This document shows positions 33,226 to 52,993 of a DNA stretch of 64,000 nucleotides, piece after piece. How positions within the stretch are numbered: position 1 is the first letter of the stretch; the number at the start of each line of letters is the position of its first letter. Source of the stretch: Rathayibacter sp. VKM Ac-2879 (GTDB lineage: Bacteria; Actinomycetota; Actinomycetes; Actinomycetales; Microbacteriaceae); contig NZ_JADKSO010000001.1 in NCBI RefSeq assembly GCF_015351245.1, positions 558,001 through 622,000 of the forward strand, in the 5' to 3' direction. A model generated the notes under the pieces. The model worked only from the letters and a program-made list of their open reading frames with translations, was not told where the DNA came from and made no database searches. A program made the position numbers and the translations under genes.

Positions 33226-33477
33226 GGTGGCCCAAGCTACGCCGAGGGGGCAGGCGAGGGTCACCCCTTGACCGCCCGGCGCCGTCAGCCGGACCGGTCG
33301 GAGTCGTCGAGGCGTGATGCCGTCTGCGATCACGCCGGCGCGTTCGAGCAGCGTGAGTCCCCTCTCGCGCTGCGACGCCGAGCATGCTCCCGGCCGTGCC
33401 AGTGCTTCAGCCGTGCTGAATCATGAGACAGCGACGTGAACTGGTGCTGAACCGACCGCGACGGCCACGATGGACCG

Positions 33478-34401
33478 GTGACCGCCTCCCTCGCCGCCCT
33501 GCCGACCACCCGAGACCGCTTTCTTCTCTGGACGGCTCTCGTCGTCACGGTCGTGCTCTGGGCCTCCGCTTTCGTGGCGATCAGGGCGATGGGCGGCGAC
33601 TTCGGCCCGGGAGCCCTCACCTTCGGGCGGATCGTGGTCGGTGCGGCCTCGCTGAGCGTGGTGCGCGTCGCGTTCCGGAGGCGTCGCCAGGCGATGCCGG
33701 CCCGCGCGGGGCTGCCTCGCGGGCGCCTCCTCGTTCTCGTGATCGCCTGGGGAGTCGCATGGTTCGGCGTCTACACGCTCGCGCTCAGCGCGGCCGAACG
33801 GCACGTCGATGCGGGAACGGCGGCGCTCCTGGTCAACATCGCCCCGATGATCACGGCGGTCTTGGCCGGCCTGCTGCTCGGAGAGGGGTTCCCGCGACGG
33901 CTGCTCGCCGGCATGCTGGTGGCGCTCGTCGGGGTGGCCGTCATCGCGTTCTCGACCTCGACCGGCCAGTTCGACGTGATCGGAGTCGTGCTCGGTCTGC
34001 TCGCGGCCGTGGTCTACGGGAGCGCTGCGACGCTCCAGAAGCGGCTCCTCGCGCACGTCGATGCTCCGACCATGACGTGGCTCGGTGCTGTGGCCACGGC
34101 TGTCGTGTGTCTGCCGTTCGCTCCGGAGTTGCTCTCGGAGCTGGCCGCGGCACCCGTCTCCTCGGCGCTCGCGCTCGTCTACCTCGGCATCTTTCCCACG
34201 GCGATCGCCTTCACGACCTGGGGATATGTGTTGGCGCGCTCGAGCGCGGGGCGCACGGCTGCGTCGACGTACGCGGTGCCGGCCGTGGTCGTCCTGCTGT
34301 CGTGGCTCCTGCTCGGCGAGACCCCACCGATGGCGGCCCTGGTCGGAGGCGCGCTCGCCCTCGCCGGTGTCGCCGTGGCGACCCTGCGTCGTCGCCCTTA
34401 G
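33478..34401 (+). CDS. EamA/DMT-superfamily transporter
   Basis: A 307-residue protein from GTG 33478 with ten predicted transmembrane helices in two EamA repeats (WASAFVAIRAMGGDFGPGAL in the first, AASTYAVPAVVVLLSWLLLG at the end of the second). The motif LLGE after helices 4 and 9 is typical. Substrate unknown; amino-acid or metabolite efflux is common. Confidence 0.9.
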   Translation: MTASLAALPTTRDRFLLWTALVVTVVLWASAFVAIRAMGGDFGPGALTFGRIVVGAASLSVVRVAFRRRRQAMPARAGLPRGRLLVLVIAWGVAWFGVYTLALSAAERHVDAGTAALLVNIAPMITAVLAGLLLGEGFPRRLLAGMLVALVGVAVIAFSTSTGQFDVIGVVLGLLAAVVYGSAATLQKRLLAHVDAPTMTWLGAVATAVVCLPFAPELLSELAAAPVSSALALVYLGIFPTAIAFTTWGYVLARSSAGRTAASTYAVPAVVVLLSWLLLGETPPMAALVGGALALAGVAVATLRRRP

Positions 34402-34477
34402 CTCCCTCCACAGGCGGCGCCTCGGCGCGTCCTCCACAGCAGGAGGGAGCGCTCGGCTGGTGAGCGAACGCCCGGGC

Positions 34478-34483
34478 TATGCT
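34478..34483 (+). promoter_or_regulatory. Possible -10 box of the TelA-PknG operon
   Basis: TATGCT lies 55 bases before the telA-like ATG, which has its own GGTGAGGAT ribosome site. The -35 is not convincing. Confidence 0.4.
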
Positions 34484-34537
34484 GTGCCGACGTTCATCCG
34501 CAGACGGCGCCGAGCGCCGAGAACGGTGAGGATCCCG

Positions 34538-35743
34538 ATGACCGAGGCCCTGCAGCCGCCCGTCCAGAACTCCCTCTCGCTGACGCCTCCCGGGCCTGTC
34601 GCGGCGGTGCCCACGACGGCCGCGCCCTCGATCGCCCCGAAGGTGCCCGAGCAGGCGCTGCCCGGTCTCGAGGCGAAGGTCGACGGCTACCTCTCCTCGC
34701 TCCTGGGTGCGGAGGCGCGCAGCCCCGAGTTCGCCGCGAAGGCGAACGACATCCGCACGATGGGCGACGCCGACATCCGTACGGCCGCAGACTCCTCGAA
34801 CCGCCTCCTCAGCACTCCCGTGCGTGCCCTCAAAGAGGGCGGCCTGTCGGAGGGGTCGACCATCGGTCGCACGCTCCTCGAGCTCAGGCGCACCGTCGAG
34901 GATCTGGACCCGTCCGAGGACAACATCCAGAAGAAGATCCTCGGATTCATTCCCTTCGGCTCCAAGATCACCGACTACTTCCGCCGCTACGAGAGCGCGC
35001 AGTCGCACCTCAACGCCATCATCCAGGCGCTGTACGACGGGCAGGACGAGCTGCGCAAGGACAACGCGGCGCTGAACCTCGAGAAGCAGCACCTCTGGGA
35101 GACGATGACGCGTCTCAACGAGTACATCTATGTCGCCGAGAGGCTCGACGTGAAGCTCTCGGCGACGATCGCCGAGCTCGACTCGACGGACCCCGAGCGC
35201 GCGAAGGCCCTGCGCGAGGACGTCCTCTTCTACGCGCGTCAGAAGCACCAAGACCTCCTGACCCAGCTCGCGGTCTCGATCCAGGGCTACCTCGCGATCG
35301 ACGTGGTCATCAAGAACAACGTCGAGCTGATCAAGGGCGTCGACCGCGCGACCACCACGACGGTCTCGGCGCTGCGCACGGCAGTGATCGTCGCGCAGGC
35401 GCTCGCCAATCAGCGTCTCGTGCTCGACCAGATCACCGCGCTCAACACGACGACGTCGAACATGATCGAGGCCACGTCGAGGATGCTCGCCGAGCAGTCC
35501 GCGACGATCCAGTCGCAGGCCGCGACCGCCACGGTGGGGCTGCCGCAGCTTCAGGCCGCGTTCGCGAACATTTACCAGACGATGGACTCGATCTCGGATT
35601 TCAAGCTCAAGGCGCTCGACAGCATGGCGCAGACCGTGGGTGTCCTCCAGACCGAGACGGCCAAGGCCGGAGAGTACGTCGAGCGCGCGCGTCGCAGCTC
35701 CGCCGACATCGACGCGACGTCCTCACTCGACCTCGGGCGATAG
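34538..35743 (+). CDS. TelA-family (toxic anion resistance) protein
   Basis: A 401-residue cytoplasmic, mostly helical protein. The TelA core starts near residue 60 and contains LLSTPVRALKEG, ILGFIPFGSKITDYFRRYES and QKHQDLLTQLAVSIQGYLAID, all highly characteristic. The family was named for tellurite resistance but is found in envelope-stress gene sets; its molecular function is not settled. Here it heads an operon that runs through GlnX, GlnH and PknG, separated by only three bases from the next gene, which suggests a signalling or membrane-stress role. Confidence 0.93.
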   Translation: MTEALQPPVQNSLSLTPPGPVAAVPTTAAPSIAPKVPEQALPGLEAKVDGYLSSLLGAEARSPEFAAKANDIRTMGDADIRTAADSSNRLLSTPVRALKEGGLSEGSTIGRTLLELRRTVEDLDPSEDNIQKKILGFIPFGSKITDYFRRYESAQSHLNAIIQALYDGQDELRKDNAALNLEKQHLWETMTRLNEYIYVAERLDVKLSATIAELDSTDPERAKALREDVLFYARQKHQDLLTQLAVSIQGYLAIDVVIKNNVELIKGVDRATTTTVSALRTAVIVAQALANQRLVLDQITALNTTTSNMIEATSRMLAEQSATIQSQAATATVGLPQLQAAFANIYQTMDSISDFKLKALDSMAQTVGVLQTETAKAGEYVERARRSSADIDATSSLDLGR

Positions 35744-35746
35744 CCG

Positions 35747-36301
35747 ATGGGCTGGTTCTCCCGCCTGTTCGGCGCTGCCCCGGAGGTGCCGGAGGAGGCC
35801 GCTCCTGCCCTTCCGCGGGTGCCCAGCAGCGATGACATCGTGGCCGCGCTCGACAGGGTCACGGCGTCCACGAAGGACCGCGTGCCTCCGATCGTCGCGG
35901 CTCGTATCCAGCGCATCGATGAGACGGTGCGAGAGATGGTGCCGCGTCTCGATCGGCTCGGCGGCATGAGCAGGCAGGGGCACACGGTCGTCGCCACCGC
36001 GACGAGCTACCTGCCCGAGGCGGTCGAGGGCTACCTCCGCCTGCCCCGCGACTTCGCCGACCGCCGTGCCGTCTATAAGGGGAAGACCTCGCTCATGGTC
36101 CTGTGCGACCAGCTCGACCTTCTCGGAGCGACGCTTGACCGCATCTCGGACGCCGTCTCGCGCCAGGACGCCTCCGCGCTTATCGCGCACGGGCAGTTCC
36201 TCGCCGACAAATTCACGGAGTCGTCTCTCTCGCCGAGCGGGCTCGACGCGGCGCAGCAGCCTCCCGCCTCCGGCTCCCTCACTCCGCCGAGCGCCTCATG
36301 A
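35747..36301 (+). CDS. Unrecognised small helical protein between TelA and AAA ATPase
   Basis: A 184-residue protein. An amphipathic N-terminus (MGWFSRLFGAAPEVPEE) could touch the membrane; residues ~60-150 are helical with a YLPEAVEGYLRLPRDFADRR motif; the C-terminus is low-complexity. In Bacillus, TelA (YaaN) is paired with XpaC, and this protein may be its counterpart (inference from position and from the YLPEtleaYl-like motif). The stop overlaps the AAA gene by ATGA. Confidence 0.75.
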   Translation: MGWFSRLFGAAPEVPEEAAPALPRVPSSDDIVAALDRVTASTKDRVPPIVAARIQRIDETVREMVPRLDRLGGMSRQGHTVVATATSYLPEAVEGYLRLPRDFADRRAVYKGKTSLMVLCDQLDLLGATLDRISDAVSRQDASALIAHGQFLADKFTESSLSPSGLDAAQQPPASGSLTPPSAS

Positions 36302-37716
36302 GCGCTCTCGCTCCTGCGCTCGACGCGCTTGTGCTCGTCGGGGCCGCCGCGGGCCTGGACGCGGCGGCCGTGCGCGACGAGGGCATGCGCCTCGCGGCAG
36401 CGGTCGCCGAGTCGATCCGAGGAGCGGGCCCGGAGTGGCTCGCCGCCACCGGGACGACCGGTGGCCTCGAGGCGTTCTTCACCTCGGCCGCGAGCGCCCG
36501 CCGCTGGCGGACGTCGCCGACCGATCTGCTCGCCGGGCTCGTGTCTGCTGGCGCACAGGAGGCCGGTGCCTACGCGCGAGCTCTCACCGAGGTCGTGTCG
36601 GCGGCGAGCGCGCTCGGCGAGCCGGGCATCGGAGGCATCGCGGCCGCGTCCGCGACGGCCGCTGCCCAGCTCGGCGCGGTGACGGCCCCGGCTGCTCCTC
36701 CTGCCGAGCGGGCTGCGTCGGCGGGGACAATGCCCGGGGGAGCCGTTCCCGCGGGCGTGCCGGGAGTCGACGAGATCCTCGCTCGCTTGCGGCGCACGGG
36801 AGGCGGCGACTCCGACGCGATCGCCCCCGCGCCGGCGCAGCAACCGCAGACGGATCCGGAGCCCGTCGAGCCGATCGACGACCTCCTCGCCGAGCTCGAC
36901 GCCCTCATCGGCCTCGACCGCGTGAAGAGCGAGATCAAGCGGCAGACCCAGCTGCTCCGCATCGATACGCTGCGCCAAGCGGTGGGCCTCAGCACGCCGA
37001 CCCTCACCCGTCATCTCGTGTTCACCGGCAACCCGGGCACGGGCAAGACCACCGTCGCCCGGCTGGTGTCGCGCATCTACCGTTCGCTCGGCATTCTCTC
37101 GAAGGGCGTCCTCGTCGAAGTGGACCGCTCGGAGCTCGTCGCGGGCTACCTCGGCCAGACGGCGACCAAGACGGCCGAGGTCATCGCGTCCGCCCGCGGC
37201 GGCGTGCTCTTCATCGACGAGGCCTACGCCCTCGCGCTCGACCAGTACGGCGCGGAGGCGGTCACGACGCTGGTGAAGGACATGGAGGACCACCGCGGCG
37301 ACCTCGTCGTCATCGTCGCCGGCTACTCCGGCCCGATGCGGGGCTTCCTCGAGACGAACCCCGGTCTGGCCAGTCGCTTCTCGACCACGATCGACTTCGC
37401 CGACTACAGCGACGACGAGCTCTCGGCGATCTTCGGTCGCTTGGCCGCGTCCGCCGACTTCGAGCCGACGCCGGAGGCGCTCGCCGCGTTCGCGACGCTC
37501 GCGGCGGCCCAGCAGCGCACGGAGGCCTTCGGCAACGGCCGCTGGGTGCGCAACATCCTCGACGCCGCCATCGCGCGTCACGCCTGGCGTCTGCGTGAGG
37601 TCGAGGAGCCGACGCTCGACGAGCTGCGCATCCTGCTGCCCGAGGACATCGCCGAGGCGGGCGAGACGACCCCCGCCTCCCCGTCCCCCGTGACACCCCC
37701 GGAAGAGTCCGCATGA
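36298..37716 (+). CDS. CbbX/SpoVK-type AAA+ ATPase
   Basis: A 472-residue protein. The Ala-rich N-terminal ~190 residues are unlike known families. The AAA domain (~195-440) begins LDALIGLDRVKSEIKR and carries Walker A GNPGTGKTT, Walker B VLFIDEAYAL, the pore-loop-like GYLGQTATKT, sensor region VVIVAGYSGPM, NPGLASRF and arginine WVRNILDAAI. This is the CbbX/SpoVK/EccA-like class that remodels protein complexes. It is coupled both upstream and downstream by ATGA overlaps. Confidence 0.93.
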   Translation: MSALAPALDALVLVGAAAGLDAAAVRDEGMRLAAAVAESIRGAGPEWLAATGTTGGLEAFFTSAASARRWRTSPTDLLAGLVSAGAQEAGAYARALTEVVSAASALGEPGIGGIAAASATAAAQLGAVTAPAAPPAERAASAGTMPGGAVPAGVPGVDEILARLRRTGGGDSDAIAPAPAQQPQTDPEPVEPIDDLLAELDALIGLDRVKSEIKRQTQLLRIDTLRQAVGLSTPTLTRHLVFTGNPGTGKTTVARLVSRIYRSLGILSKGVLVEVDRSELVAGYLGQTATKTAEVIASARGGVLFIDEAYALALDQYGAEAVTTLVKDMEDHRGDLVVIVAGYSGPMRGFLETNPGLASRFSTTIDFADYSDDELSAIFGRLAASADFEPTPEALAAFATLAAAQQRTEAFGNGRWVRNILDAAIARHAWRLREVEEPTLDELRILLPEDIAEAGETTPASPSPVTPPEESA

Positions 37717-39029
37717 GCACTGCACCCGCCGCGTCGCCCACGACGAATGCTCCTCAGCCACGGATCGCCACCGCGCCCGCGCCACGCCGGCCCTCTCTGC
37801 TCACGCGGGTCACGGCGACGACCCCGGCGACCCTCCGGTCGCTGCTCGCGCTCACCGTGATCGCCGCGGTGCTCTTCGGAGTCTTCGCGCAGCAGGCGGG
37901 GGCGATGCAGGCCCGTGCGGCGACCGAGGCGCGCGAACAGTCCGCGCAGCTGGTCGGCGTGCAGAACGTCCGCAATCTCCTCGTCGACGCGAACGCGATC
38001 GCCGCCAACACCTTCCTGGTCGGCGGGCTCGAGCCCACCGATCAACGTGAGGCCTACGTGAAGAACCTCACCGACGCCGCGGCCCAGATCGCGCAGCTCT
38101 CGGCGAGCGACTCTGCCGACGCGGCGGTGCTCGCGTCGGTCGCGAGCAAGGTCGCGAGCTATAGCGGCTTGGTCGAGCAGGCTCGCGCGACCAACAGGCA
38201 GGGCTTCCCCGTCGGCTCCGCCTACCTCGATCAGGCCTCCGCGCAGCTCAGCGACGACGATGGGATCCTCGCCGATCTCAATGCCCTCGTGGCGACGGCT
38301 GCCGACCGGGTGGCCCACGCGTACGACACCGTGCGCTGGAGCGTCCTGCTGCTCGTGGGTTCGCTCGTGATGCTGCTGGTGCTCCTCGCCGCGCAAGTGT
38401 GGCTCGCGCGGCGCACGCACCGCTACCTCAACCGCCCGCTCGCGACGGCGACGGCGCTCCTTCTCGTGCTCGGTATCGGAGGGGGCGTGGTCTACGGATC
38501 GACGGCCGCGAACGCGAGCAGCGCCCGGCAGGACTCCTACCGGGCCGCCGTGACCGTGTCGCAGGCGTTGACGGCGGCGAGCGATGCCAAATCGCTCGAG
38601 AGCTTCACCCTCATCAAGCGCGGCTCGGGGGCCGCGCTGGAGGCGCAGTTCCAGGTCGCCGCGCAGGGCGCACGCGACAAGCTCGAGGACGGCGTCAGTC
38701 GTGGCATCGTCGACGGAAGGCTCGTCGGTGAGTTCGACACCTGGCTCGCCTTCCACCGGCAGATCCGCGAGGCCGACGACGGCAACGACTGGGAGAAAGC
38801 GGTCGGCATCGCGACCGCCACCGGCAGCGGCACGCCGAACGACGCGTTCGCGGCCTTCGCCTCCGACGCCCGTGAGGTCGTGAGCGAGGAGGCCGCGGCG
38901 ACCGGGTCGACCCTCGACGCCGCCGGCCGCTTCTCGACCCTCGCCTCCTGGGTTCTGCTCGTCGCCGGAGTGGCGGGCGCGGTCCTCGCGTGGCGCGGGG
39001 TTTCTCAGCGACTGGAGGAGTACCGATGA
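37713..39029 (+). CDS. glnX: GlnX-like membrane sensor protein
   Basis: A 438-residue membrane protein: cytoplasmic Pro/Ala-rich start, helix 1 (~43-65), extracytoplasmic helical bundle (~66-205), helix 2 (~207-230), short RRTHRYLNRP turn, helix 3 (~243-265), second extracytoplasmic bundle (~266-405), helix 4 (~408-428), short cytoplasmic end. Two four-helix-type sensor bundles and lack of a signalling domain match mycobacterial GlnX, which links GlnH to PknG. Both neighbours in this operon are exactly GlnH and (one gene on) PknG. Confidence 0.85.
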   Translation: MSTAPAASPTTNAPQPRIATAPAPRRPSLLTRVTATTPATLRSLLALTVIAAVLFGVFAQQAGAMQARAATEAREQSAQLVGVQNVRNLLVDANAIAANTFLVGGLEPTDQREAYVKNLTDAAAQIAQLSASDSADAAVLASVASKVASYSGLVEQARATNRQGFPVGSAYLDQASAQLSDDDGILADLNALVATAADRVAHAYDTVRWSVLLLVGSLVMLLVLLAAQVWLARRTHRYLNRPLATATALLLVLGIGGGVVYGSTAANASSARQDSYRAAVTVSQALTAASDAKSLESFTLIKRGSGAALEAQFQVAAQGARDKLEDGVSRGIVDGRLVGEFDTWLAFHRQIREADDGNDWEKAVGIATATGSGTPNDAFAAFASDAREVVSEEAAATGSTLDAAGRFSTLASWVLLVAGVAGAVLAWRGVSQRLEEYR

Positions 39030-39997
39030 ACCGGGTGCGCGTTGCCGTTCTGGCCCTCGTCACCGCCACCGTGCTCGCCGTCGCCGGCTGCTCGAGCGGA
39101 GGAGACGATCTGGGCGCGCCGATTGCAGCGGCCACCGCGGCGGCGACGCCCGCGCCGACGACGAGTGCGGCGCCTCCGGTCGCCGACTGCTCGCCCTCGG
39201 CCGTCACGTCGTACGCGCCCACCGGAGTCACCGAGAGCACGCGCCTCGCCGAGATCCGCCAGCGCGGCACCCTTCGCGTCGGCGTCTCGGCCGACACCCT
39301 GCTGATGAGCGCGCGCAACCCGCTCACCGGGACGATCGAGGGCTTCGACGTCGATATCGCTCGCGAGATGGCGAGGGCGATCCTCGGCAGTCCCGACGCG
39401 ATCACGTTCGTCGTGATCACCTCAGCGCAGCGTCTCCCGTCGCTCACGGGCGGCGACGGCGCCCCGCAGGTCGACATGGTCGCGCGGACCCTCACGATGA
39501 CCTGCGACCGCTGGAGCAGCATCGCCTTCTCGTCCGAGTACTACGGCGCGGGCCTCAAAGTGCTCGTCTCGACCAGCAGCGACCAGACGAGCATCCAGGG
39601 CCTCGAAGCCAAGGGTGGCCAGAAGGTCTGCGCGCCCCGCGGCACGACGACGCTCAGCCGCCTCCAGAGCGACTACCCGGGGGTCGAGGCGGTCGCCGCC
39701 GATACGCACACGCAGTGCCTCGCGCTGTTCCAGGAGGGGCAGGTCGAGGCGATCGCGGGCGACGACACGATCCTCGCCGGCTTCGTCGCACAAGACCCGT
39801 ACGCGAAGGTCGTCGGTGACGCGCTGAGCTCCGAGCCCTATGGCTTGGGGCTTCCCGCTGACGACGTCGACTTCGTCCGTTTCGTCAACGGCGCTCTCGA
39901 GGGCATCCGCAGCGACGGTCGTTGGCAGAGCATCTACGATCGCTGGCTGGGAGCGCTCGGGCAGGCGTCGCCTCCGGCGCCGGTGTACGGCCGATGA
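39026..39997 (+). CDS. glnH: GlnH-like glutamate/glutamine-binding lipoprotein
   Basis: A 323-residue solute-binding protein starting in an ATGA overlap with glnX. Signal with lipobox VAGC (Cys21), Ala/Thr/Pro linker, then a type II periplasmic-binding fold: LAEIRQRGTLRVGVSADTLL, GTIEGFDVDIAREMARAILG, VDMVARTLTMTCDRW and QSIYDRWLG. Two extra Cys pairs may form disulfides. No ABC permease or ATPase is nearby, which fits a sensory rather than transport function through GlnX. Confidence 0.92.
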   Translation: MNRVRVAVLALVTATVLAVAGCSSGGDDLGAPIAAATAAATPAPTTSAAPPVADCSPSAVTSYAPTGVTESTRLAEIRQRGTLRVGVSADTLLMSARNPLTGTIEGFDVDIAREMARAILGSPDAITFVVITSAQRLPSLTGGDGAPQVDMVARTLTMTCDRWSSIAFSSEYYGAGLKVLVSTSSDQTSIQGLEAKGGQKVCAPRGTTTLSRLQSDYPGVEAVAADTHTQCLALFQEGQVEAIAGDDTILAGFVAQDPYAKVVGDALSSEPYGLGLPADDVDFVRFVNGALEGIRSDGRWQSIYDRWLGALGQASPPAPVYGR

Positions 39998-41124
39998 GCG
40001 CGGGCGTCGCGGAGGGGACTCCGCTCGCGCCGGGTCGCCTCGGCGAGGCCGCTCCCCAGCGCGAGCTCTTCGACTATCTCGCGGCCCTCAGACGCTGGCT
40101 CGACCGCACCTCGCGCGAGCTTGCCCGCCTCGACGCCGCGGCGCTCGCCTCGCCGCAGGCCGAAAGCTACACGTCCGACGTCGTGCTCGCGCAGTCCTTG
40201 CGAGAGTCGGTGACGCGTCGACTCGCCGAGCTCGAGGCCGTCTGGGATTCGGGTCGGGTCGACGCCCTCGGCCGCGAGAGGCTGTCGCAGCTGATCTGGG
40301 GCCGACTGGACGCCTCCGGATCGGGGGCCGCCGTCTCGCTCGTCGAAGCCGTCCGCCTCTGCGACGCGGTCGTCGCGCAGCTGAAGTCGCGCCTCGAACT
40401 GGACCCCAGCGGGACCGACACGGCGGGACGGATCGTCGGGGTGCGGGCAGAGATCGAGCGGTGCCGTGACCTCGCGCGAGCCGGGGCGCCCGAGCTCGAG
40501 CGGGTGGCCGTGCTCCGGTCTCGCCTCGACGCCCTCGCAGAGAGGGCTGGTCGGGGAGCGGACATCGCCGGCCCGCTCGGGCAGCTCGAGCGCGACTCCG
40601 CTCGCCTCGAGCGCGACCTCATCATCGCGGCCTCCGAGCGTCGAGGGCTCGAACGCGATCGGCGTCGAGCGCGTGAGCTGGCCGAGACGGCCGAACGGAG
40701 GGAGGCGCCGCTGCGCGAGCTGGTCGCCCGCTGCCGCCGCGAGATCGCCGACCCGCCCCGCCTGGCCGTCCCCGACGTCTCGCGTCTGGGCGAGCCTCCC
40801 ACGCAGCGGGAGGCGCTCGACGCGCACCTCGAGCGCCTCGCCGCCGTCGGTCGCGCCTTCGACGCCGTCGAGGCCGCATACACCGCTCCGCTGCGCGAGC
40901 GGGCCGCGCTGGGGTTCCGCCTCCGTGCCCTCCAGGAGCGCGCCGTCACCAACGGCCGCGCCGACACCGCCGTGGGTCGCGCCGCCGAGGAGGAGGTCCG
41001 CGCCGCGCTCGACGCCGTGCCCTGCTCGGTGCCGCTCGCCCGCCATCTCGTCGAGCAGTACGACGTCGTCACTCGCGATCTCCCGCCTCGCGCACCCCAG
41101 CACCACCGGAAGGCCACTCCATGA
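39994..41124 (+). CDS. Coiled-coil protein of the GlnX-GlnH-PknG operon
   Basis: A 376-residue cytoplasmic protein, almost entirely helical, with heptad-rich Leu/Ala/Arg/Glu stretches (for example LERDSARLERDLIIAASERR near 205). No enzymatic motif is visible. It starts in an ATGA overlap with glnH and ends in one with pknG, so it is made in step with both. A scaffold role for the kinase is plausible but is inference; I do not recognise a named family. Confidence 0.75.
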   Translation: MSAGVAEGTPLAPGRLGEAAPQRELFDYLAALRRWLDRTSRELARLDAAALASPQAESYTSDVVLAQSLRESVTRRLAELEAVWDSGRVDALGRERLSQLIWGRLDASGSGAAVSLVEAVRLCDAVVAQLKSRLELDPSGTDTAGRIVGVRAEIERCRDLARAGAPELERVAVLRSRLDALAERAGRGADIAGPLGQLERDSARLERDLIIAASERRGLERDRRRARELAETAERREAPLRELVARCRREIADPPRLAVPDVSRLGEPPTQREALDAHLERLAAVGRAFDAVEAAYTAPLRERAALGFRLRALQERAVTNGRADTAVGRAAEEEVRAALDAVPCSVPLARHLVEQYDVVTRDLPPRAPQHHRKATP

Positions 41125-43451
41125 ACGGCGAGCACTGCTCTGCGACCCCGGGCTGCACCGGGACGATCGAGGACGGCTACTGCAACGTCTGCGGGCTTCC
41201 GCCCGGGGAGGGCGCGGTTGCGTCCACTCCCACGGCCCGTCGTACCGCGCCGGCCCCCGCCACCGCGTCGGCCGCTTTCGGCACGGGCTTCGTCGAGGGC
41301 ACCCCCGCTCCCGCCCCCGCGGCCGGGTGGGGAGGAGAGGAGGCGGTGACCGCGCGCAGCGGACGCACCTCCTCCGCGCGCCTGGCCACCGCCGCCCTCG
41401 GCTCGGCTCGCACCGCCCAGACCGGCTCGAAGGTCACCCGGAGGGTCGGGACGACGTCCACGCGCTTGCGCGGCCCGCGTCTCGGCGCCGGACTGACGAC
41501 CGTCCCCGCGCGACCCGCGGCCGACCCGATGGCCGCCCTCATGGCCGAGGCCGTGCTGCCGGAGCGCAAGCGCTTCTGCGCGCACTGCGGCACCGAGGTC
41601 GGTCGGGGGCGTGAGGGGCGGCCGGGACGCAGCGAGGGCTTCTGCCCGAACTGCCGAACGCCGTTCTCGTTCACTCCGCAGCTGAAGGCGGGCGACGTCG
41701 TCGCCGGGCAGTACGAGGTCGTGGGCTGCCTCGCGTTCGGAGGCCTCGGCTGGATCTACCTCGGACGGGACAGGAACGTCTCGGGTCGCTGGGTCGTGCT
41801 CAAGGGCCTGCTCAACTCCGGCGATCCCGATGCGTCGGCCGCCGCGATCACCGAGCGCCAGTTCCTCGCCGAGGTCGAGCATCCGCTCATCGTCGAGATC
41901 TACAACTTCGTGCTGCACGAGGGTGCCGGCTACATCGTCATGGAGTACGTCGGCGGTCCGAGCCTCAAGCAGATCCTCCAGGAGCGGCGCGACGCGAAGG
42001 GGGGAGCGGCCGATCCGCTGCCGGTCGACCAGGCGCTCGCCTTCGTGCTCGAGGTGATGCCGGCGTTCGCCTACCTGCACGACCACGGCCTGCTCTACTG
42101 CGACTTCAAGCCTGACAACATGATCCAGGTCGCCGACCAGGTGAAGCTCATCGATCTCGGAGGCGTGCGTCGCGCCGACGATGAGGAGTCCGCGATCTAC
42201 GGCACCGTCGGCTATCAGGCACCGGAGGTGGCGGAGCTCGGCCCGTCCATCGCCTCCGACGTCTACACGATCGGCCGCACTCTCGCCTCGCTCGTGCTCG
42301 ACTTCCGCGGCAACCAGACCACCTACGTCGCTTCGTTGCCGCCCGTGTCCCAGACCCCGGTGTTCCAGCGGTACGACTCGTTCTATCGACTGGTGGCCAA
42401 GGCGTGCGCGCCCGACCCGCAGGACCGCTTCGCGACCGTCGACGAGATGCGCGGGCAGTTGCTCGGGGTGCTGCGCGAGGTCGTCGCGACCGACCGCGGA
42501 CCGGGGCACCCTGCTCTGCACTCCACCGCCTCCGCGCTGTTCGAGGCGCCCGTCGCCGACATCGTCGACCGAGTGCCGCCGTGGGATGCGCTGCCTGCGC
42601 TGCGCATCGACGAGTCCGATCCCGCGAAGGCGTGGCTCGCGGGCGTGAACGTCGCCGATCCGGTCGTGCGGCTGCGTGCGCTCGCGCTCGCGCCGACGGT
42701 CACGGTGGAGGTGCGTCTGGCGCGGGCTCGCGCCGCGATCGAGGCCGAGCGGTGGGAGGAGGTCTCTCGCGCGACGGGCGAGATCCTCACCGAGGATCCG
42801 TGGGAGTGGCGCGCGGTGTGGATGAGCGGCCTGGCCCAGCTCGCGCGCGGCGATGACATCGGCGCCCGCGCGTCGTTCAACACCGTCTACGGCCAGGTGC
42901 CGGGCGAGCTCGCGCCCAAATTGGCGCTCGCGGCGGCCTGCGAGGCGAGCGGCGAGCCGGAGGTGGCGGAGTCGCTCTACGTGATCTGCGCGCGCGCCGA
43001 CGCCAACTACACGGCTCCTGCCGCGTTCGGTCTCGCCCGCGTCCGGCAGCATCGCTCCGACCTCGACGGGGCCCTCGACGCCCTCGACATCGTCACCCCG
43101 ACGCGCTCCTCGTACGTTGACGCGCGCCGTCGCCGTGCCGAGCTTCTGGCCGAGTCCGGCCGTGGGCTTCCGGCACTCTCGGCCGCGCTCGCGAGTGTCG
43201 ACTCGATCGCGATCGATCAGCGTTCGCGTCTCGAGCTCACTGCTCGGGTCCTCGAGTCCGCGCTGGAGCTGGTGCGCCGCGACGGGCCGGCCGAGGGCGC
43301 GACGCTCGGCGGGGTGGAGGCGAATGAGGCGGCGATCCGCGACGGGCTGGAGTCGTCCTATCGTGCGCTGGCCGCCTCCACTCGTGTGCGCGACGAGCGT
43401 GTGCGCCTGGTCGACCAGGCGAACGACGTGCGCCGCTGGACGTTGACGTGA
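41121..43451 (+). CDS. pknG: Serine/threonine protein kinase PknG
   Basis: A 776-residue soluble kinase with PknG architecture. N-terminal extra zinc ribbon (C6, C12, C21, C24), a disordered Ala/Thr-rich region, the rubredoxin-like motif (C153, C156, C175, C178), kinase domain (~195-460) with lysine K228, catalytic loop YCDFKPDN (D328, no HRD Arg) and DLG (345-347) in place of DFG, both hallmarks of PknG, then a TPR domain (~500-770). The known system senses glutamate through GlnH and GlnX and phosphorylates an FHA protein that tunes 2-oxoglutarate metabolism. The first ribbon is an addition to the mycobacterial form. Confidence 0.96.
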   Translation: MNGEHCSATPGCTGTIEDGYCNVCGLPPGEGAVASTPTARRTAPAPATASAAFGTGFVEGTPAPAPAAGWGGEEAVTARSGRTSSARLATAALGSARTAQTGSKVTRRVGTTSTRLRGPRLGAGLTTVPARPAADPMAALMAEAVLPERKRFCAHCGTEVGRGREGRPGRSEGFCPNCRTPFSFTPQLKAGDVVAGQYEVVGCLAFGGLGWIYLGRDRNVSGRWVVLKGLLNSGDPDASAAAITERQFLAEVEHPLIVEIYNFVLHEGAGYIVMEYVGGPSLKQILQERRDAKGGAADPLPVDQALAFVLEVMPAFAYLHDHGLLYCDFKPDNMIQVADQVKLIDLGGVRRADDEESAIYGTVGYQAPEVAELGPSIASDVYTIGRTLASLVLDFRGNQTTYVASLPPVSQTPVFQRYDSFYRLVAKACAPDPQDRFATVDEMRGQLLGVLREVVATDRGPGHPALHSTASALFEAPVADIVDRVPPWDALPALRIDESDPAKAWLAGVNVADPVVRLRALALAPTVTVEVRLARARAAIEAERWEEVSRATGEILTEDPWEWRAVWMSGLAQLARGDDIGARASFNTVYGQVPGELAPKLALAAACEASGEPEVAESLYVICARADANYTAPAAFGLARVRQHRSDLDGALDALDIVTPTRSSYVDARRRRAELLAESGRGLPALSAALASVDSIAIDQRSRLELTARVLESALELVRRDGPAEGATLGGVEANEAAIRDGLESSYRALAASTRVRDERVRLVDQANDVRRWTLT

Positions 43452-44485
43452 GCGCCGAGCTTTCGACGCCGTGCCCGGTCTGTGGCGAGCCCGTCACGAC
43501 GGGCGATGCGTTCTGCGAGGCGTGCGGAGCGACGCTGATCGTCGCTGCCGCCTCCGCAGCCCCCACGGAGCGGCCGCTCTGCACACAGTGCGGGGGAGTC
43601 GTGGCCGAGGACGGCTACTGCGAGCAGTGCGGCGCGCGGGCGCCGAGCGGGCGCGAGCACTGGGCGGAGGCGCCGCATCCCCTGGTCGGCGGCGTCTGCG
43701 ACCGCGGACGCCGTCACGCCGCCAACGAGGATGCGCTGGCCGTCGGCGCTGTCGTCGACGACGACGGCACGCTGCGTACGGCCCTGCTGGTCGTGTGCGA
43801 CGGCGTCTCCTCGACACCCGACTCCGATGCCGCCTCCCTCGCGGCGGCGCGGGCGGCGCTGAGCGCGCTGCAGTCCGAGGTCGGCACCTCGGTGCGCGGT
43901 GTCGACCGCTGGAGGGCGTTGCTGCAGATGGCCACGGTGCGTGCCTCCGGAGCGATCGACGCTGCCGTGCCCGGGAAGCGTGCGAACCCTCCTTCGTGCA
44001 CGTTCACCGCGGCCGTGCTCGACGGTGCGCTCCTCGTGACGGGCAACGTCGGCGACAGCCGCAGCTACTGGATCCCGGACGAGGGGGAGCCGCGGCAGTT
44101 GACGATCGACGACTCCTGGGCGCAAGAGCAGATCGCGGCGGGCGTCGCGCGCGACACGGCGGAGGCGGCGCCCGAGGCGCATGCGATCACGCGTTGGCTG
44201 GGCTCCGACTCGCACGACGAGGAGCCGCGCATCGCCTCCGAGACGCTGGTCGACCCCGGCTGGGTGCTGGTCTGCTCGGACGGCCTGTGGAACTACGCGT
44301 CCGCCGCGGACGACCTCGCGCGCGTGGTGCACGAGGCTGAGGGGCGGGTCGGTCGGGATCCCGTGACGCTCGCGGAGGCTCTCGTCGCGTGGGCGAACGA
44401 GCACGGCGGCCAGGACAACATCACGGCGGCGCTCGCCCGATTCGAGGGTGCTGCCGATCCGTCCAAGGAGGCGGTCGGCGACTAG
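43448..44485 (+). CDS. PP2C-family Ser/Thr phosphatase with two zinc ribbons
   Basis: A 345-residue protein from GTG 43448 (GTGA overlap with pknG). Two Cys4 ribbons (C9, C12, C23, C26 and C45, C48, C58, C61) precede the PP2C domain (~78-335): GRRHAANEDA, LLVVCDGVSS, GNVGDSRSYW, LVCSDGLWNY and GQDNITAALA supply the metal-binding acids. It is the natural antagonist of PknG, made from the same mRNA. Confidence 0.93.
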   Translation: MSAELSTPCPVCGEPVTTGDAFCEACGATLIVAAASAAPTERPLCTQCGGVVAEDGYCEQCGARAPSGREHWAEAPHPLVGGVCDRGRRHAANEDALAVGAVVDDDGTLRTALLVVCDGVSSTPDSDAASLAAARAALSALQSEVGTSVRGVDRWRALLQMATVRASGAIDAAVPGKRANPPSCTFTAAVLDGALLVTGNVGDSRSYWIPDEGEPRQLTIDDSWAQEQIAAGVARDTAEAAPEAHAITRWLGSDSHDEEPRIASETLVDPGWVLVCSDGLWNYASAADDLARVVHEAEGRVGRDPVTLAEALVAWANEHGGQDNITAALARFEGAADPSKEAVGD

Positions 44486-44519
44486 ACGATTCCGCGCCCG
44501 CTCGTGTCGCCTCCGCGCC

Positions 44520-44525
44520 TACAGT
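44520..44525 (+). promoter_or_regulatory. -10 box of MMSDH gene, near-leaderless
   Basis: TACAGT ends eight bases before the ATG at 44533 and no ribosome site lies between, so the mRNA probably starts at or next to the start codon. Confidence 0.6.
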
Positions 44526-44532
44526 CGAGCGC

Positions 44533-46050
44533 ATGAGCATCGCCGAGCCCGCCGCCTCGTTGTCCGTCGTCGGCCACTGGATCGACGGGGCGCCGTCGCC
44601 GTCGACCTCGGGGCGTACCGCAGCTGTGCACGACCCGGCCTTGGGAGTCGTCACCAAGGAGGTCGCGCTCGCCGACGCGGCCGAGGTCGCCGTGGCCGTC
44701 GCCTCCGCCTCGGCCGCGTTCCCCGCGTGGCGCGACACCTCGCTGGCGCGGCGACAACAGATCGTCTTCCGGTTCCGCGAGCTGCTCGAGGCCAAGAAGC
44801 AGGAGCTCGCCGAGATCATCACGTCCGAGCACGGCAAGGTCGTCTCGGACGCGCTCGGCGAGATCAGCCGGGGTCAGGAGGTGGTGGAGTTCGCGACAGG
44901 GCTCGCCCACCACCTCAAGGGCGAATACTCCGAACAGGTCTCGACCGGAGTCGACGTCTACTCGATCAGGCAGCCCCTGGGGGTCGTCGCGATCATCAGC
45001 CCCTTCAACTTTCCTGCGATGGTGCCGATGTGGTTCTTCCCCCTCGCGATCGCCGCGGGCAACGCCGTCGTCGTGAAGCCCTCCGAGAAGGATCCGTCGG
45101 CTGTCGTCTGGCTCGGCGCCCTCTGGAAGGAGGCGGGCCTGCCCGACGGCGTGTTCACGGTCGTCAACGGCGACAAGGTGGCTGTCGATGCGCTGCTCGA
45201 GCACCCCGACGTGCGGTCCATCTCGTTCGTCGGCTCCACTCCGATCGCCCGCTACGTCTACGAGACGGGCACTCGCCACGGCAAGCGCGTGCAGGCCCTC
45301 GGTGGCGCGAAGAACCACATGCTGGTCCTGCCCGACGCCGACCTCGACCTCGTGGCCGACTCCGCTATCAATGCGGGCTTCGGCTCGGCAGGCGAACGCT
45401 GCATGGCCGTCAGCGTCGTGGTCGCGGTGGAGCCGATCGCGGACGAGCTGGTCGAGAAGATCCGGGAGCGGGCCGTGCGGCTGCGCACGGGAGACGGCCG
45501 TCGGGGGTGCGACATGGGGCCGCTCGTGACGCGTCAGCATCGCGACAAGGTCGCCTCCTACATCGGTGTCGCCGAGGAGGACGGCGCCCGCGTCGTCGTC
45601 GACGGTCGCGGTGTCGAGGTCGACGGCGACCCGAACGGCTTCTGGCTCGGTCCGACCCTGCTCGATGACGTCCCCGTCACCTCCCGCGCCTACACCGAGG
45701 AGATCTTCGGCCCCGTGCTGTCGGTCGTGCGCGTCGGCTCCTACGAGGAGGGCGTGGCGCTCCTCAACAGAGGCGCCTTCGGCAACGGCGCCGCGATCTT
45801 CACGAACGACGGAGGCGCGGCCCGCCGCTTCCAGAACGAGGTCGAGGTCGGGATGATCGGCATCAACGTGCCGATCCCGGTGCCCGTCGCCACGTTCTCG
45901 TTCGGAGGCTGGAAGGACTCGCTCTTCGGCGACACCAAGGCGCACGGTGCTGAGGGTGTGCGTTTCTTCACCCGGCAGAAGGCGATCACGAGTCGGTGGC
46001 TCGACCCGTCTCACGGCGGCATCAACCTCGGCTTCCCGCGCACGTCCTGA
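44533..46050 (+). CDS. mmsA: Methylmalonate/malonate-semialdehyde dehydrogenase (CoA-acylating)
   Basis: A 505-residue aldehyde dehydrogenase. PFNFPAMVPMWFFPLAIAAG is the MMSDH version of the NAD site, and the nucleophile is C290 in GSAGERCMA; FGGWKDSLFGD is also typical. It converts malonate or methylmalonate semialdehyde with CoA and NAD to acetyl- or propionyl-CoA. With the class III aminotransferase and PucR regulator just downstream, beta-alanine or related omega-amino acids are the likely source. Confidence 0.93.
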   Translation: MSIAEPAASLSVVGHWIDGAPSPSTSGRTAAVHDPALGVVTKEVALADAAEVAVAVASASAAFPAWRDTSLARRQQIVFRFRELLEAKKQELAEIITSEHGKVVSDALGEISRGQEVVEFATGLAHHLKGEYSEQVSTGVDVYSIRQPLGVVAIISPFNFPAMVPMWFFPLAIAAGNAVVVKPSEKDPSAVVWLGALWKEAGLPDGVFTVVNGDKVAVDALLEHPDVRSISFVGSTPIARYVYETGTRHGKRVQALGGAKNHMLVLPDADLDLVADSAINAGFGSAGERCMAVSVVVAVEPIADELVEKIRERAVRLRTGDGRRGCDMGPLVTRQHRDKVASYIGVAEEDGARVVVDGRGVEVDGDPNGFWLGPTLLDDVPVTSRAYTEEIFGPVLSVVRVGSYEEGVALLNRGAFGNGAAIFTNDGGAARRFQNEVEVGMIGINVPIPVPVATFSFGGWKDSLFGDTKAHGAEGVRFFTRQKAITSRWLDPSHGGINLGFPRTS

Positions 46051-46086
46051 TGCGTTCTTCTCGTGTCGCGACGGTGCCGTTGTGCG

Positions 46087-47586: not shown

Positions 47587-47616
47587 GCGCGGCTCCCTTC
47601 GACGTTCCGTCCATCG

Positions 47617-47634
47617 TAGGGTCGAGGCTTCGAC
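47617..47634 (+). promoter_or_regulatory. -10 box and inverted repeat in PucR/aminotransferase promoter
   Basis: TAGGGT (47617-47622) overlaps the inverted repeat GTCGA-GGCT-TCGAC (47621-47634), in the region between divergent starts at 47586 and 47681. A candidate PucR site. Confidence 0.5.
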
Positions 47635-47680
47635 GGATCCGCACGAGCGCTCGAGCGCCTCCCGGGGCACGATGGAGGGC

Positions 47681-49006: not shown

Positions 49007-49011
49007 CCCTC

Positions 49012-49030
49012 CCGCCGCCCGTCGCGGCGG
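49012..49030. terminator. Short hairpin between convergent genes
   Basis: CCGCCGC-5-GCGGCGG follows the aminotransferase stop by five bases and precedes the end of the convergent ZIP gene. Confidence 0.55.
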
Positions 49031-49037
49031 AGGCAAG

Positions 49038-49781: not shown

Positions 49782-49794
49782 GGTGGCAAGCCTG

Positions 49795-50730: not shown

Positions 50731-50849
50731 CCGCACCCCTCCCGTCGAAGCGGCCGATGCTACCGGACGAGGCCAGCAGCCGGGGCGCTCGTGTCCTCGC
50801 GGGCCCAGCGGTCGAGGTGCGGGAGGACCCCGGGTCGAGGTGCGCCCCA

Positions 50850-50855
50850 TACACT
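50850..50855 (+). promoter_or_regulatory. -10 box of VWA gene, leaderless
   Basis: TACACT ends seven bases before ATG 50862, placing the expected start of transcription on the A of the start codon; no ribosome site is present. Confidence 0.65.
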
Positions 50856-50861: not shown

Positions 50862-52136
50862 ATGGCGGAGTTCAGCGCGAGTGTCTTCCAGAACGAGTTC
50901 CTCTCGGACGGTGCCACGGACGTGCACGCGATCGTGACGGTGACCGCCTCGGGCACCGGCGCCGCGGGGTCCGACGGTGCGGCTGCCGAGATCATCATCG
51001 TCGACTGCTCGGGGTCGATGACCGGCGAGAACATGACTGCCGCCAAGCGTGCCGCGTCCGTCGCCGTCGACCAGATCCTCGACGGCACCTTCTTCGCCGT
51101 GGTGGCGGGCTCCGAGCGGGCCGACCGCGCCTTCCCGTACCCCAATGCCTCCGTCTCGATGGTGCGGATGGAGCCGGGCGCGCGAGCCGCCGCGAAGGAG
51201 GCGATCGGGTTCCTCCGGGCCGACGGCGGCACCGCGATGGGCACCTGGCTGACTCTCGCGCGCCAGCTCTTCGCGACCGTGCCGGAGGCGTCGCAGCGGC
51301 ACGCGATCCTCCTCACCGACGGCAAGAACGAGCACGAGTCGCGCCTGCAGCTCGACGCTGCGATCCGGGCGGCGGGAGGCGAGTTCCAGTGCGACGTGCG
51401 CGGCGTCGGTTCGCGCTGGATCGTCGAGGAGGCGCGCACCATCGCGAGCGCACTGCTCGGTACCGTCGGTCTCATCGCCGACCCGGCCGATATGGCCGCC
51501 GATTTCGAGCAGCTGATGCGGGCCTCGATGGGCCGCGGAGTCGCAAACGGCGAGCTGCGCGTGTGGACTCCGCAGGGCGCCCAGCTGCTGTTCGTGCGAC
51601 AGGTCGCGCCGACCCTCGAAGACCTGAGCGCCCGCCGCGCCGCCGTGAACCCGCTGACGGGCTCCTACCCGACCGGCGCGTGGGGCGACGAGTCCCGCGA
51701 CTATCACGTGGCGGTGCGCGTCGCCTCGAAGCCGGTGGGGTCGGAGCAGCTCGCCGCCCGCGTGCAGCTCAGCGTGCGCGACGAGGTGGTCGCCTCGGCC
51801 CTCGTGAAGGCCCGCTGGACCGACGACTCCGCATTGACCGCCCGCATCGACCCCGCCGTCGCGCACTACACGGGCCAGACCGAGTTGGCATCCGCGATCC
51901 AGGACGGGCTCGCCGCGAAGGCCGTGGGCGATGACGCGACCGCGACCGTCAAGCTCGGACGTGCCGTGCAGCTCGCGGCGGCCACCGGCAACGACGAGGC
52001 GACCGCGAAGCTGCGCAAGGTCGTCGAGATCGACGACCCCGACGAGGGCACCGTGCGCCTCAAGCGCGGTGTCGACCGTCTCGACGAGATGGCGCTGGAC
52101 ACGGCCTCGACCAAGACGACGCGGGTGCGCAAGTGA
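50862..52136 (+). CDS. VWA-domain protein of the PknG/FHA signalling group
   Basis: A 424-residue cytoplasmic protein. After an N-terminal beta region (FSASVFQNEFLSDGATDVHA), the VWA domain has a full MIDAS: IVDCSGSMTGENM (DxSxS), the Thr in GGTAMGTWL and Asp in LLTDGKNEHE. A beta-rich domain (~235-320) and a helical C-terminus follow. It is coupled by GTGA to a zinc-ribbon FHA protein. VWA, FHA, PP2C and PknG proteins often cluster in actinobacteria, so it probably scaffolds that system. Confidence 0.88.
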   Translation: MAEFSASVFQNEFLSDGATDVHAIVTVTASGTGAAGSDGAAAEIIIVDCSGSMTGENMTAAKRAASVAVDQILDGTFFAVVAGSERADRAFPYPNASVSMVRMEPGARAAAKEAIGFLRADGGTAMGTWLTLARQLFATVPEASQRHAILLTDGKNEHESRLQLDAAIRAAGGEFQCDVRGVGSRWIVEEARTIASALLGTVGLIADPADMAADFEQLMRASMGRGVANGELRVWTPQGAQLLFVRQVAPTLEDLSARRAAVNPLTGSYPTGAWGDESRDYHVAVRVASKPVGSEQLAARVQLSVRDEVVASALVKARWTDDSALTARIDPAVAHYTGQTELASAIQDGLAAKAVGDDATATVKLGRAVQLAAATGNDEATAKLRKVVEIDDPDEGTVRLKRGVDRLDEMALDTASTKTTRVRK

Positions 52137-52993
52137 GCTACCGCTGCCCCGAGGGGCACACCTCGGAGTCGGGCGACTACTGCGATGTGTGCGGTGTCCC
52201 GATCGTCTCCGCGCCGGCTCCTGGTCCCGCTCCGACGACCGCGATCCCGATCGGCCCCTCGGTGTGCCCGAACTGTTCGTACCCCCATGAAGCGGAAGCG
52301 CTGTTCTGCGAGAACTGCGGCTACGACTTCACCACGGGCTCCCTGCCGGAGAGCGATCCCTTCACGGAGTCGGGAGCGGTGCGCGCTCCGGCAGAGGTGG
52401 GCGGCTCGCCGTCTCCCCTGCCTTTCGACCCGGCGGCACCCACCGCGCTCGTGCCCGAGCAGGAGGCAGGGTTCGACGTGCCGGTCGCGACCGCGCCGCC
52501 GACTCCCGCCGAGCCTCCGACCGAGGTGATCCCGGAGGCGGCTCCTGCCGCTCCCGAGCAGGCTCCGGCGGCTCCCGAGCCGGAGGAGACCCGCCCCTGG
52601 ATCGCCGAGCTGTGGATCGATCCCGAGTGGTACGCCGAGCAGCGGGCGGAGGATCCGATGCCCTCTCCCGGTCCGCCGACCACCATCGTCTTGCGCGAGC
52701 GCTCCCTCCTCGTCGGTCGCCCGTCCGTCTCGCGGGGTATCTCGCCCCAGATCGACTGCGGCTCCGATTCCGGCGTCTCGCGGAGGCACTGCCAGCTGAG
52801 CACGGACGGCTACCGCTGGTGGGTCGAAGACCTCCAGTCGGCCAACGGCACTTACGTCGCGCCCGCGGGGGCACCTCTTCCGCAGACGCCGGTCGCACCC
52901 GGACGGCGCCGCGAGCTCGAGGACGGCGACCGCATCTACGTCGGCGCATGGACCCGCATCGTGCTTCGCGAGGCCTTCCCCGGCGAGGCCTGA
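52133..52993 (+). CDS. Double zinc-ribbon FHA-domain protein
   Basis: A 286-residue protein. N-terminal metal sites (C5, H9, C17, C20 and C45, C48, C59, C62), a Pro/Ala/Glu linker (~70-155), then an FHA domain (~180-280) with LLVGRPS, SGVSRRHCQLS and VEDLQSANGTYV, including the phosphothreonine-binding Arg, Ser and Asn. GTG 52133 overlaps the VWA stop. It is the best candidate in this window for a PknG-type FHA target or reader, as GarA/OdhI are in relatives, though those lack zinc ribbons. Confidence 0.92.
   Translation: MSYRCPEGHTSESGDYCDVCGVPIVSAPAPGPAPTTAIPIGPSVCPNCSYPHEAEALFCENCGYDFTTGSLPESDPFTESGAVRAPAEVGGSPSPLPFDPAAPTALVPEQEAGFDVPVATAPPTPAEPPTEVIPEAAPAAPEQAPAAPEPEETRPWIAELWIDPEWYAEQRAEDPMPSPGPPTTIVLRERSLLVGRPSVSRGISPQIDCGSDSGVSRRHCQLSTDGYRWWVEDLQSANGTYVAPAGAPLPQTPVAPGRRRELEDGDRIYVGAWTRIVLREAFPGEA

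What the first reader, a model, noticed from the sequence alone, without database searches (positions are those of the whole stretch)
34538..44485. TelA and a CbbX-type AAA ATPase built into a GlnX-GlnH-PknG-PP2C operon
Eight genes run without gaps, almost all joined by ATGA/GTGA overlaps: TelA, small unknown, AAA ATPase, GlnX, GlnH, coiled-coil protein, PknG, PP2C. The core GlnX/GlnH/PknG glutamate-sensing module is known from mycobacteria and corynebacteria. Addition of TelA, an AAA remodeller, an unknown helical protein and a dedicated phosphatase suggests an enlarged system in which nutrient sensing is tied to membrane or toxic-anion stress.
Basis: partly seen in the sequence, partly recalled or inferred. 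Interest (0 to 1): 0.85.

Follow-up and report, generated by a model that had tools for sequence, protein, structure and literature searches.

The report
Ten-gene PknG operon with TelA
A group of soil and plant-associated actinobacteria keeps the known three-gene amino-acid sensor and protein kinase (GlnH, GlnX, PknG) inside a conserved ten-gene operon with its own phosphatase, a possible phosphorylation target, and a TelA/AAA module of unknown job, which offers a testable link between nutrient signalling and the cell envelope.

Summary
The eight genes are real and in the stated order; six of seven junctions are 4-bp overlaps. The arrangement is not strain-specific: all eight are collinear in 69 of the 80 closest PknG loci, and the other 11 are cut by contig ends.

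TelA and AAA travel with PknG in broader samples. Operon-type TelA and PknG occur in the same 5 of 150 family genomes. The AAA subfamily occurs in 8 of 197 class genomes, always beside TelA, 7 times with PknG. TelA-small-AAA was probably added once to a seven-gene cluster.

"Glutamate-sensing" is not supported as stated: GlnH keeps general amino-acid contacts, but the Asp-reading Trp232 is present in 14 of 14 three-gene loci and 0 of 78 named relatives of the window.

The proposed circuit (PknG, FHA protein, PP2C, AAA/vWA, TelA) is inference. I rate this a new variant of a known kind.

The parts
34538..35743 (+). TelA family protein, 401 aa, operon-type subfamily
   Evidence: Pfam TelA 304.9 bits; 63-93% identical in the 36 other loci aligned
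35747..36301 (+). small TelA-partner protein, 184 aa, no Pfam family; relatives sit near TelA genes outside PknG loci
36298..37716 (+). AAA ATPase of the CbbX/SpoVK/EccA kind, own subfamily; Walker A, Walker B and SRF patterns in 77 of 77 family members
37713..39029 (+). GlnX-family signal-transduction membrane protein, 438 aa
   Evidence: NCBIfam NF058618 268.4 bits, cut-off 250
39026..39997 (+). GlnH-type solute-binding protein, 323 aa, lipobox-like VAGC; Asp-reading Trp replaced by His228
39994..41124 (+). long helical protein, 376 aa, no family; C-terminal 72 columns homologous to the gene at the same place in seven-gene loci
41121..43451 (+). PknG: rubredoxin, kinase, TPR; catalytic Lys/Asp/Asn kept
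43448..44485 (+). PP2C phosphatase with N-terminal double zinc ribbon, GTG start
50862..52136 (+). vWA protein, 424 aa, MIDAS DCSGSM; ninth gene of the conserved operon, 6376 bp past PP2C here
52133..52993 (+). double zinc ribbon + FHA protein, 286 aa; CGYDFTTG motif; tenth gene, 4-bp GTGA overlap with vWA

Best explanation
This is a conserved, clade-specific ten-gene form of the GlnH-GlnX-PknG signalling operon. Shown by sequence: gene order, family identities, catalytic motifs, single-clade distribution, and co-occurrence of TelA and AAA with PknG. Inferred mechanism: the lipoprotein GlnH binds an amino acid (or related amine) outside the cell and signals through GlnX. GlnX, with the helical protein between GlnH and PknG as adaptor, activates PknG through its TPR domain. 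PknG phosphorylates the in-operon double-zinc-ribbon FHA protein, and probably the GarA-like FHA protein encoded elsewhere; PP2C resets it. The phospho-state decides whether the FHA protein docks on partners. The vWA protein and the AAA ATPase form a remodelling unit that assembles or clears TelA and its small partner, adjusting envelope tolerance to nutrient state.
For: Ten collinear genes in 63 of 80 loci; of the 17 others, 14 are cut by a contig end and 3 are Rathayibacter with the last two genes not within the stretch held. Operon-type TelA and PknG are in the same 5 of 150 family genomes. The AAA subfamily (335 bits or more) is in 8 of 197 genomes, 8 beside TelA, 7 with PknG. The ten-gene loci are one side of one branch of the PknG tree, SH-aLRT 100 (quick method). 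Kinase, phosphatase, AAA and vWA motifs are kept (exceptions in the full report). CGYDFTTG is in 71 of 71 FHA proteins: 69 named loci, the window and L257. GlnH amino-acid contacts R169 and D250 are kept in 78 of 78 named loci. Published: GlnH and GlnX are needed to activate PknG in mycobacteria (PMC6069109, passages). Published: a Listeria telA disruption mutant was 4-fold more susceptible to nisin and 2-fold to tellurite, as cited in PMC12791056 (passages).
Against: No expression, interaction or phosphorylation data. TelA-AAA exists without PknG in one genome (L231/G086), so the module can do without this input. TelA elsewhere sits with other genes (SBP-vWA, TerD), so its link to PknG is not general. 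In Rathayibacter the vWA-FHA pair has moved away, so strict co-transcription is not required. The DFTTG site is only a guess: it follows a zinc ribbon and may be structural, and 7 of 21 seven-gene-type loci lack the related Thr-rich stretch. FHA hallmark SRRH is in 45 of 70 and PP2C motif DG[VI]SS in 65 of 80. The ligand is unknown.
Confidence: 0.55

Rival explanations
1. Two independent modules that share a transcript. The GlnH-GlnX-PknG branch only controls GarA and 2-oxoglutarate metabolism, while TelA-small-AAA is an envelope-stress module that rides on the same promoter without any phosphorylation link.
For: TelA-AAA without PknG in L231; seven-gene loci without TelA; GarA-like FHA proteins seen in 5 of 5 genomes examined (the label GarA-like is my reading).
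Against: In the samples, operon-type TelA and this AAA are nearly confined to PknG loci (7 of 8 AAA; 5 of 5 high-scoring TelA in the family sample). The order TelA-small-AAA-GlnX is kept in every uncut locus of the 80, from at least nine named families.
Confidence: 0.3
2. The operon mainly responds to oxyanion or envelope damage. GlnH in this clade senses a stress-linked amine rather than a nutrient, and PknG no longer serves glutamate metabolism.
For: No Trp at position 232 (0 of 78 named loci) and Arg instead of Lys161 in 75 of 78; TelA tied to nisin and tellurite tolerance in Listeria (cited there); TelA relatives beside a TerD-domain gene.
Against: GlnH keeps R147, R169 and D250, an amino-acid site; a GarA-like protein is present in the five genomes examined.
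Confidence: 0.15

Closest known systems
GlnX-GlnH-PknG module of mycobacteria and corynebacteria
   Same: GlnX family, GlnH (best PDB match 6h2t, 'Probable glutamine-binding lipoprotein GlnH', E 8.6e-61) and PknG (best match 2pzi, E 7e-138), same order.
   Different: Seven more genes; GlnH side-chain pocket changed; in-operon phosphatase and FHA protein. None of the other seven was found beside the 14 three-gene loci; two of these (L143, L144) are cut within 1 kb downstream.
Seven-gene GlnX-GlnH-CC-PknG-PP2C-vWA-FHA clusters found in this survey
   Same: Same seven genes and order; CC C-termini homologous (hhalign 97.5%).
   Different: No TelA, small or AAA found next door.
XpaC-TelA pairs of Firmicutes (named in PMC12791056, passages)
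   Same: TelA beside a partner gene.
   Different: The small protein does not match PF10112; no kinase is named in that pair.
Ter stress systems with vWA, PP2C and kinase (recalled; Anantharaman 2012 is not held)
   Same: Mix of TelA, vWA, PP2C and kinase; another actinobacterial TelA-small pair sits beside a TerD-domain gene (L232), as does a Curtobacterium plasmid TelA.
   Different: No TerD among the ten; the sensor is GlnH-GlnX.

Membership tests
GlnH-GlnX-PknG signalling module | GlnX family membrane protein | tested here: met
   subfamily model 268.4 bits, cut-off 250; narrower equivalog 'kinGactiv_GlnX' 88.7 of 780, not met
GlnH-GlnX-PknG signalling module | PknG rubredoxin-kinase-TPR with catalytic residues | tested here: met
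   VVLKGL and CDFKP[DE]N in 82 of 82 aligned rows
GlnH-GlnX-PknG signalling module | GlnH activates PknG through GlnX in the cell | not testable with these tools
   needs mutants
Asp/Glu-specific GlnH | side-chain contacts R147, T162, W232 (PMC6069109 section 9) | tested here: not met
   R kept in 78 of 78; T162 is T in the window but A 30, N 24, T 24 of 78 named loci; W232 is His in the window and W in 0 of 78
TelA | Pfam TelA domain over cut-off | tested here: met
   304.9 against 30 bits
TelA | toxic-anion or envelope resistance | not testable with these tools
   needs deletion strain
CbbX / SpoVK / EccA equivalogs | NCBIfam equivalog cut-offs 459.25 / 422.95 / 466.65 | tested here: not met
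   224.4 / 251.3 / 228.0 bits
XpaC (PF10112) for the small protein | match to the Pfam model | tested here: not met
   PF10112 is not among the matches of 41 members at E<=1; a profile comparison with XpaC sequences was not run
Known anti-phage systems | PADLOC match beyond generic kinase/AAA | tested here: not met
   only AAA and PknG matched, by generic AAA and kinase models (first eight proteins only)

The most novel reading that the evidence does not exclude
In one clade of Actinomycetota, TelA and its AAA/vWA machinery have become a direct output of a PknG phospho-switch: an extracellular amino-acid-type signal other than Asp/Glu sets the phosphorylation of the zinc-ribbon FHA protein (perhaps at the invariant DFTTG), which recruits the AAA remodeller to TelA at the membrane. 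This would give TelA a defined input and PknG a second output besides GarA.
Probability: 0.3. Interest if true: 0.8.

Novelty: new variant of a known kind. Interest (0 to 1): 0.6.

Why it matters
PknG is a well-studied bacterial Ser/Thr kinase, but the passages seen here describe its operon as three genes. An operon that carries its own PP2C, FHA candidate substrate and TelA/AAA module gives concrete candidates for three questions: what resets PknG signalling, what else PknG phosphorylates, and what TelA does. The changed GlnH pocket also suggests that Asp/Glu sensing cannot be assumed across Actinomycetota.

Tried and rejected
Chance or strain-specific neighbourhood: rejected.

CbbX, SpoVK or EccA identity for the AAA: rejected by cut-offs; it scores as a separate subfamily.

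Anti-phage system: only generic hits.

XpaC identity of the small protein: no PF10112 match; PF10112 had no match over its cut-off in 98 class genomes.

TelA structure by sequence: nothing in the PDB better than E 0.24. Coiled-coil model: mean pLDDT 92.3, pTM 0.60, nearly all helical; Foldseek against the PDB found no match better than E 0.89. The TelA model was still queued at the end.

Promoter/terminator scan of 33400-53300: 0 promoter-like and 0 terminator-like sites (shuffle means 0.3 and 3.1); uninformative for a high-GC actinobacterium.

First pass for GarA: a motif search found one, and a print on the wrong strand for minus-strand hits was uninformative; corrected.

A Nonomuraea stretch was fetched but carries no annotation and was not analysed.

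Literature: searches showed no paper that links pknG with TelA. 'pknG' + 'toxic anion resistance' gave 0 papers; the 7 papers with PknG and TelA were judged unrelated from titles and abstracts alone, as were the other listings. Only the open library was searched, and figures are not held (Fig. 2B of PMC6069109 shows operon conservation and was not seen).

Full report
WHAT IS THERE. The eight genes of the finding were translated and identified with Pfam and NCBIfam: TelA, a 184-aa protein without a family, an AAA ATPase, GlnX, the solute-binding protein GlnH, a 376-aa helical protein without a family, PknG, and a PP2C with a double zinc ribbon. Six of the seven junctions are 4-bp overlaps and one is a 3-bp gap. 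The window's PknG is 87-90% identical to PknG in five Rathayibacter loci, so the window is from that genus or close to it; no whole genome was held for it.

THE OPERON HAS TEN GENES. A scan of genome contigs with PknG gave 262 relatives, of which the best 80 were kept; these are therefore close relatives, not a random sample. All eight genes are found on one strand and in order in 69 of 80; the 11 misses are loci cut by contig ends. A comparison of ORFs from 16 of the loci and the window with those of all 80 showed two further conserved genes after PP2C: a vWA protein and a zinc-ribbon/FHA protein. With profiles built from these loci, all ten are present in 63 of 80, and what is present is collinear in 80 of 80. 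Of the 17 others, 14 end at a contig edge and three (L001, L002, L034, all Rathayibacter) lack the last two within the stretch held. In the window the pair sits 6376 bp past PP2C, behind an aldehyde dehydrogenase, a PucR-type regulator and a class III aminotransferase. In G001 (L001's genome) it is 14.4 kb past PP2C, and in L003 (Rathayibacter) 7.2 kb. Elsewhere it is close: over the 74 loci that hold both, the median is 50 bp and only L003 and L005 (931 bp) exceed 500 bp. Pfam confirms VWA_3 with VWA_3_C, and FHA.

HOW WIDESPREAD. In 197 genomes drawn from the class, 58 match the PknG rubredoxin family, 55 over its cut-off. This undercounts: the family does not ring in the C. glutamicum control, whose PknG lacks that domain, and at most 27 candidates were scored in each genome. 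I fetched 60 of the 73 listed places; left out were G001, ten secondary places and two weak ones. Result: 19 loci GlnX-GlnH-CC-PknG-PP2C-vWA-FHA, 2 the same without a CC hit, 14 GlnX-GlnH-PknG only (two of them cut within 1 kb downstream), 7 with GlnX-GlnH downstream of the PknG cluster, 6 with all ten, 11 others (partial, paralogous or cut), and 1 without a PknG hit. The CC label in seven-gene loci rested on weak scores (25-40 bits). A profile comparison with 16 of the 21 genes at that place gave 97.5% probability over 72 C-terminal columns.

ONE ORIGIN. On a PknG tree of 76 rows (the window, 20 of the 80 named loci, 55 of the 60 class loci) the ten-gene loci need one change (SH-aLRT 100) and lie beside seven-gene loci; all six labels together need the minimum of five changes. 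Cautions: quick method, midpoint root for drawing only, a long-branch warning for the outgroup and the three-gene clade, and four of the 23 rows labelled 'seven' are not full matches (L182 and L183 without a CC hit, L188 without vWA or FHA, L191 cut). The simplest reading is that TelA-small-AAA was added once, in front of GlnX, in an ancestor of the present carriers, which fall in at least nine named families (Microbacteriaceae, Cellulomonadaceae, Promicromonosporaceae, Beutenbergiaceae, Kineosporiaceae, Dermatophilaceae, Intrasporangiaceae, Kribbellaceae, Nocardioidaceae). Whether the three-gene form is ancestral or reduced is not settled.

CO-OCCURRENCE. In 150 genomes of the window's family, PknG (by its rubredoxin family, at most 35 candidates scored in each genome) occurs in 5. 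TelA occurs in 19, with a sharp score gap: 5 at 664-784 bits and the rest at 340 bits or less. The five high scorers are the same five genomes, with TelA about 6 kb from PknG on the same strand. These five are relatives, so they are not five independent events. In the class sample TelA matches in 33 of 197 genomes, 7 of them beside PknG. The AAA subfamily (335 bits or more; next best 261) occurs in 8 of 197 genomes, all beside TelA and 7 with PknG (at most 8 candidates scored in each genome). The eighth, G086, has TelA-AAA without small between them and without a PknG match, which speaks for TelA-AAA as a unit and against strict dependence on PknG.

TELA ELSEWHERE. I fetched the neighbourhoods of 20 of the other 26 TelA-bearing genomes. 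A relative of the small protein sits near TelA in 15 of 20; AAA in one; GlnX, GlnH, CC, PknG, PP2C and FHA in none; vWA only at 17-18 bits in two. Several carry an SBP-vWA protein and several others a TerD-domain protein by mutual similarity; Pfam was run on one of each (L244, L232). Of 17 plasmid records with TelA I viewed six: vWA genes are annotated near TelA in three and TerD genes in one. TelA-small thus occurs with different sensors. An alignment of 13 small-family members has an invariant YLP.

GLNH POCKET. The GlnH structure paper (PMC6069109, section 9 read) names S164, R169 and D250 for the amino-acid backbone, and R147, T162, W232 and K161 (via water) for the Asp side chain. Mapped through and a joint alignment: R169, D250 and R147 are kept in 78 of 78 named loci (in seven-gene-type loci D250 in 18 of 21). 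W232 is W in 14 of 14 three-gene loci but in 0 of 78 named loci (H 57, D 19, V 2), 0 of 6 ten-gene loci of the class sample, 0 of 21 seven-gene-type and 0 of 7 of the downstream type. K161 is K in 14 of 14 three-gene loci and R in 75 of 78 named loci. The mapping is one alignment; the loop before W232 is variable and could shift by a residue. An amino-acid-like ligand is likely; Asp/Glu specificity is not supported.

SUBSTRATE CANDIDATES. The in-operon FHA protein has two zinc ribbons and CGYDFTTG in 71 of 71 (69 named loci, window, L257). In 14 of the 21 seven-gene-type loci the same stretch reads NFLTNTATSYTP or close to it; the other seven differ. The TT is a candidate phosphosite by analogy with the Thr pair of GarA/OdhI (recalled), nothing more. 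A second, GarA-like FHA protein exists in each of the five genomes examined (G001-G005). I named it GarA-like by eye; no call tested it against GarA. So PknG in this clade may well have two FHA targets.

MACHINERY (unless stated). AAA Walker A, Walker B and SRF patterns: 77 of 77 members. vWA MIDAS pattern: 74 of 75. PP2C: GDSR and SDGLW 80 of 80, NEDA 77, DN[IVA]T 77, DG[VI]SS 65 of 80. FHA: NGT 67, GRPS.SR 58, SRRH 45 of 70. GlnH lipobox-like pattern 67 of 79. PknG catalytic Lys, Asp and Asn: 82 of 82 aligned rows. The coiled-coil protein is predicted as nearly all helical with long helices (mean pLDDT 92.3, pTM 0.60) and no PDB match better than E 0.89. The TelA model did not finish in time.

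LITERATURE. Passages of PMC6069109, PMC9769921 and PMC8546545 describe the operon as glnX-glnH-pknG and propose GlnH to GlnX to PknG signalling. PMC6069109 states that the linkage is wide in Actinobacteria and predicts Asp/Glu specificity within Actinomycetales. Passages of PMC12791056 report that a Listeria telA disruption increased susceptibility to nisin and tellurite, citing Collins 2010, which I did not read. Searches showed no paper on TelA with PknG in the open library; subscription papers are not covered.

VERDICT. Real, conserved, and larger than described. The system is a clade-specific variant of a known signalling module. The coupling of PknG to TelA is well supported as a genomic association and unproven as a mechanism.

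Noticed in passing
window 44486-50861: Aldehyde dehydrogenase, PucR-type regulator and class III aminotransferase genes separate vWA-FHA from PP2C. The distance is 6.4 kb here, 7.2 kb in L003 and 14.4 kb in G001; in the other genera only L005 (931 bp) exceeds 500 bp. The operon seems to have split in Rathayibacter.
   Followed up: partly
L231 (G086) 9049-12080: TelA directly followed by the operon-type AAA in a genome without a PknG rubredoxin match and without small in between: a TelA-AAA remnant or stand-alone unit.
   Followed up: partly
L241, L244, L245 and relatives; L232, L233, L236, L243: Other actinobacterial TelA loci: an SBP-vWA protein and a small partner with an apparent N-terminal membrane hairpin (by eye) follow TelA in the first set; the second set carries a TerD-domain gene after the small partner (Pfam run on L244 and L232 only).
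   Followed up: partly
L196, L197, L198: Divergent PknG-like kinase next to a vWA gene without GlnX/GlnH, a possible paralogous system.
   Followed up: no
L172-L174, L178-L180, L187: PknG cluster with GlnX-GlnH placed downstream instead of upstream; GlnH there has Tyr at the Trp232 position in 7 of 7.
   Followed up: no
L085 (G001), L092 (G005): GarA-like FHA proteins outside the operon; the one in G005 (Nocardioides) carries its own zinc ribbon.
   Followed up: partly
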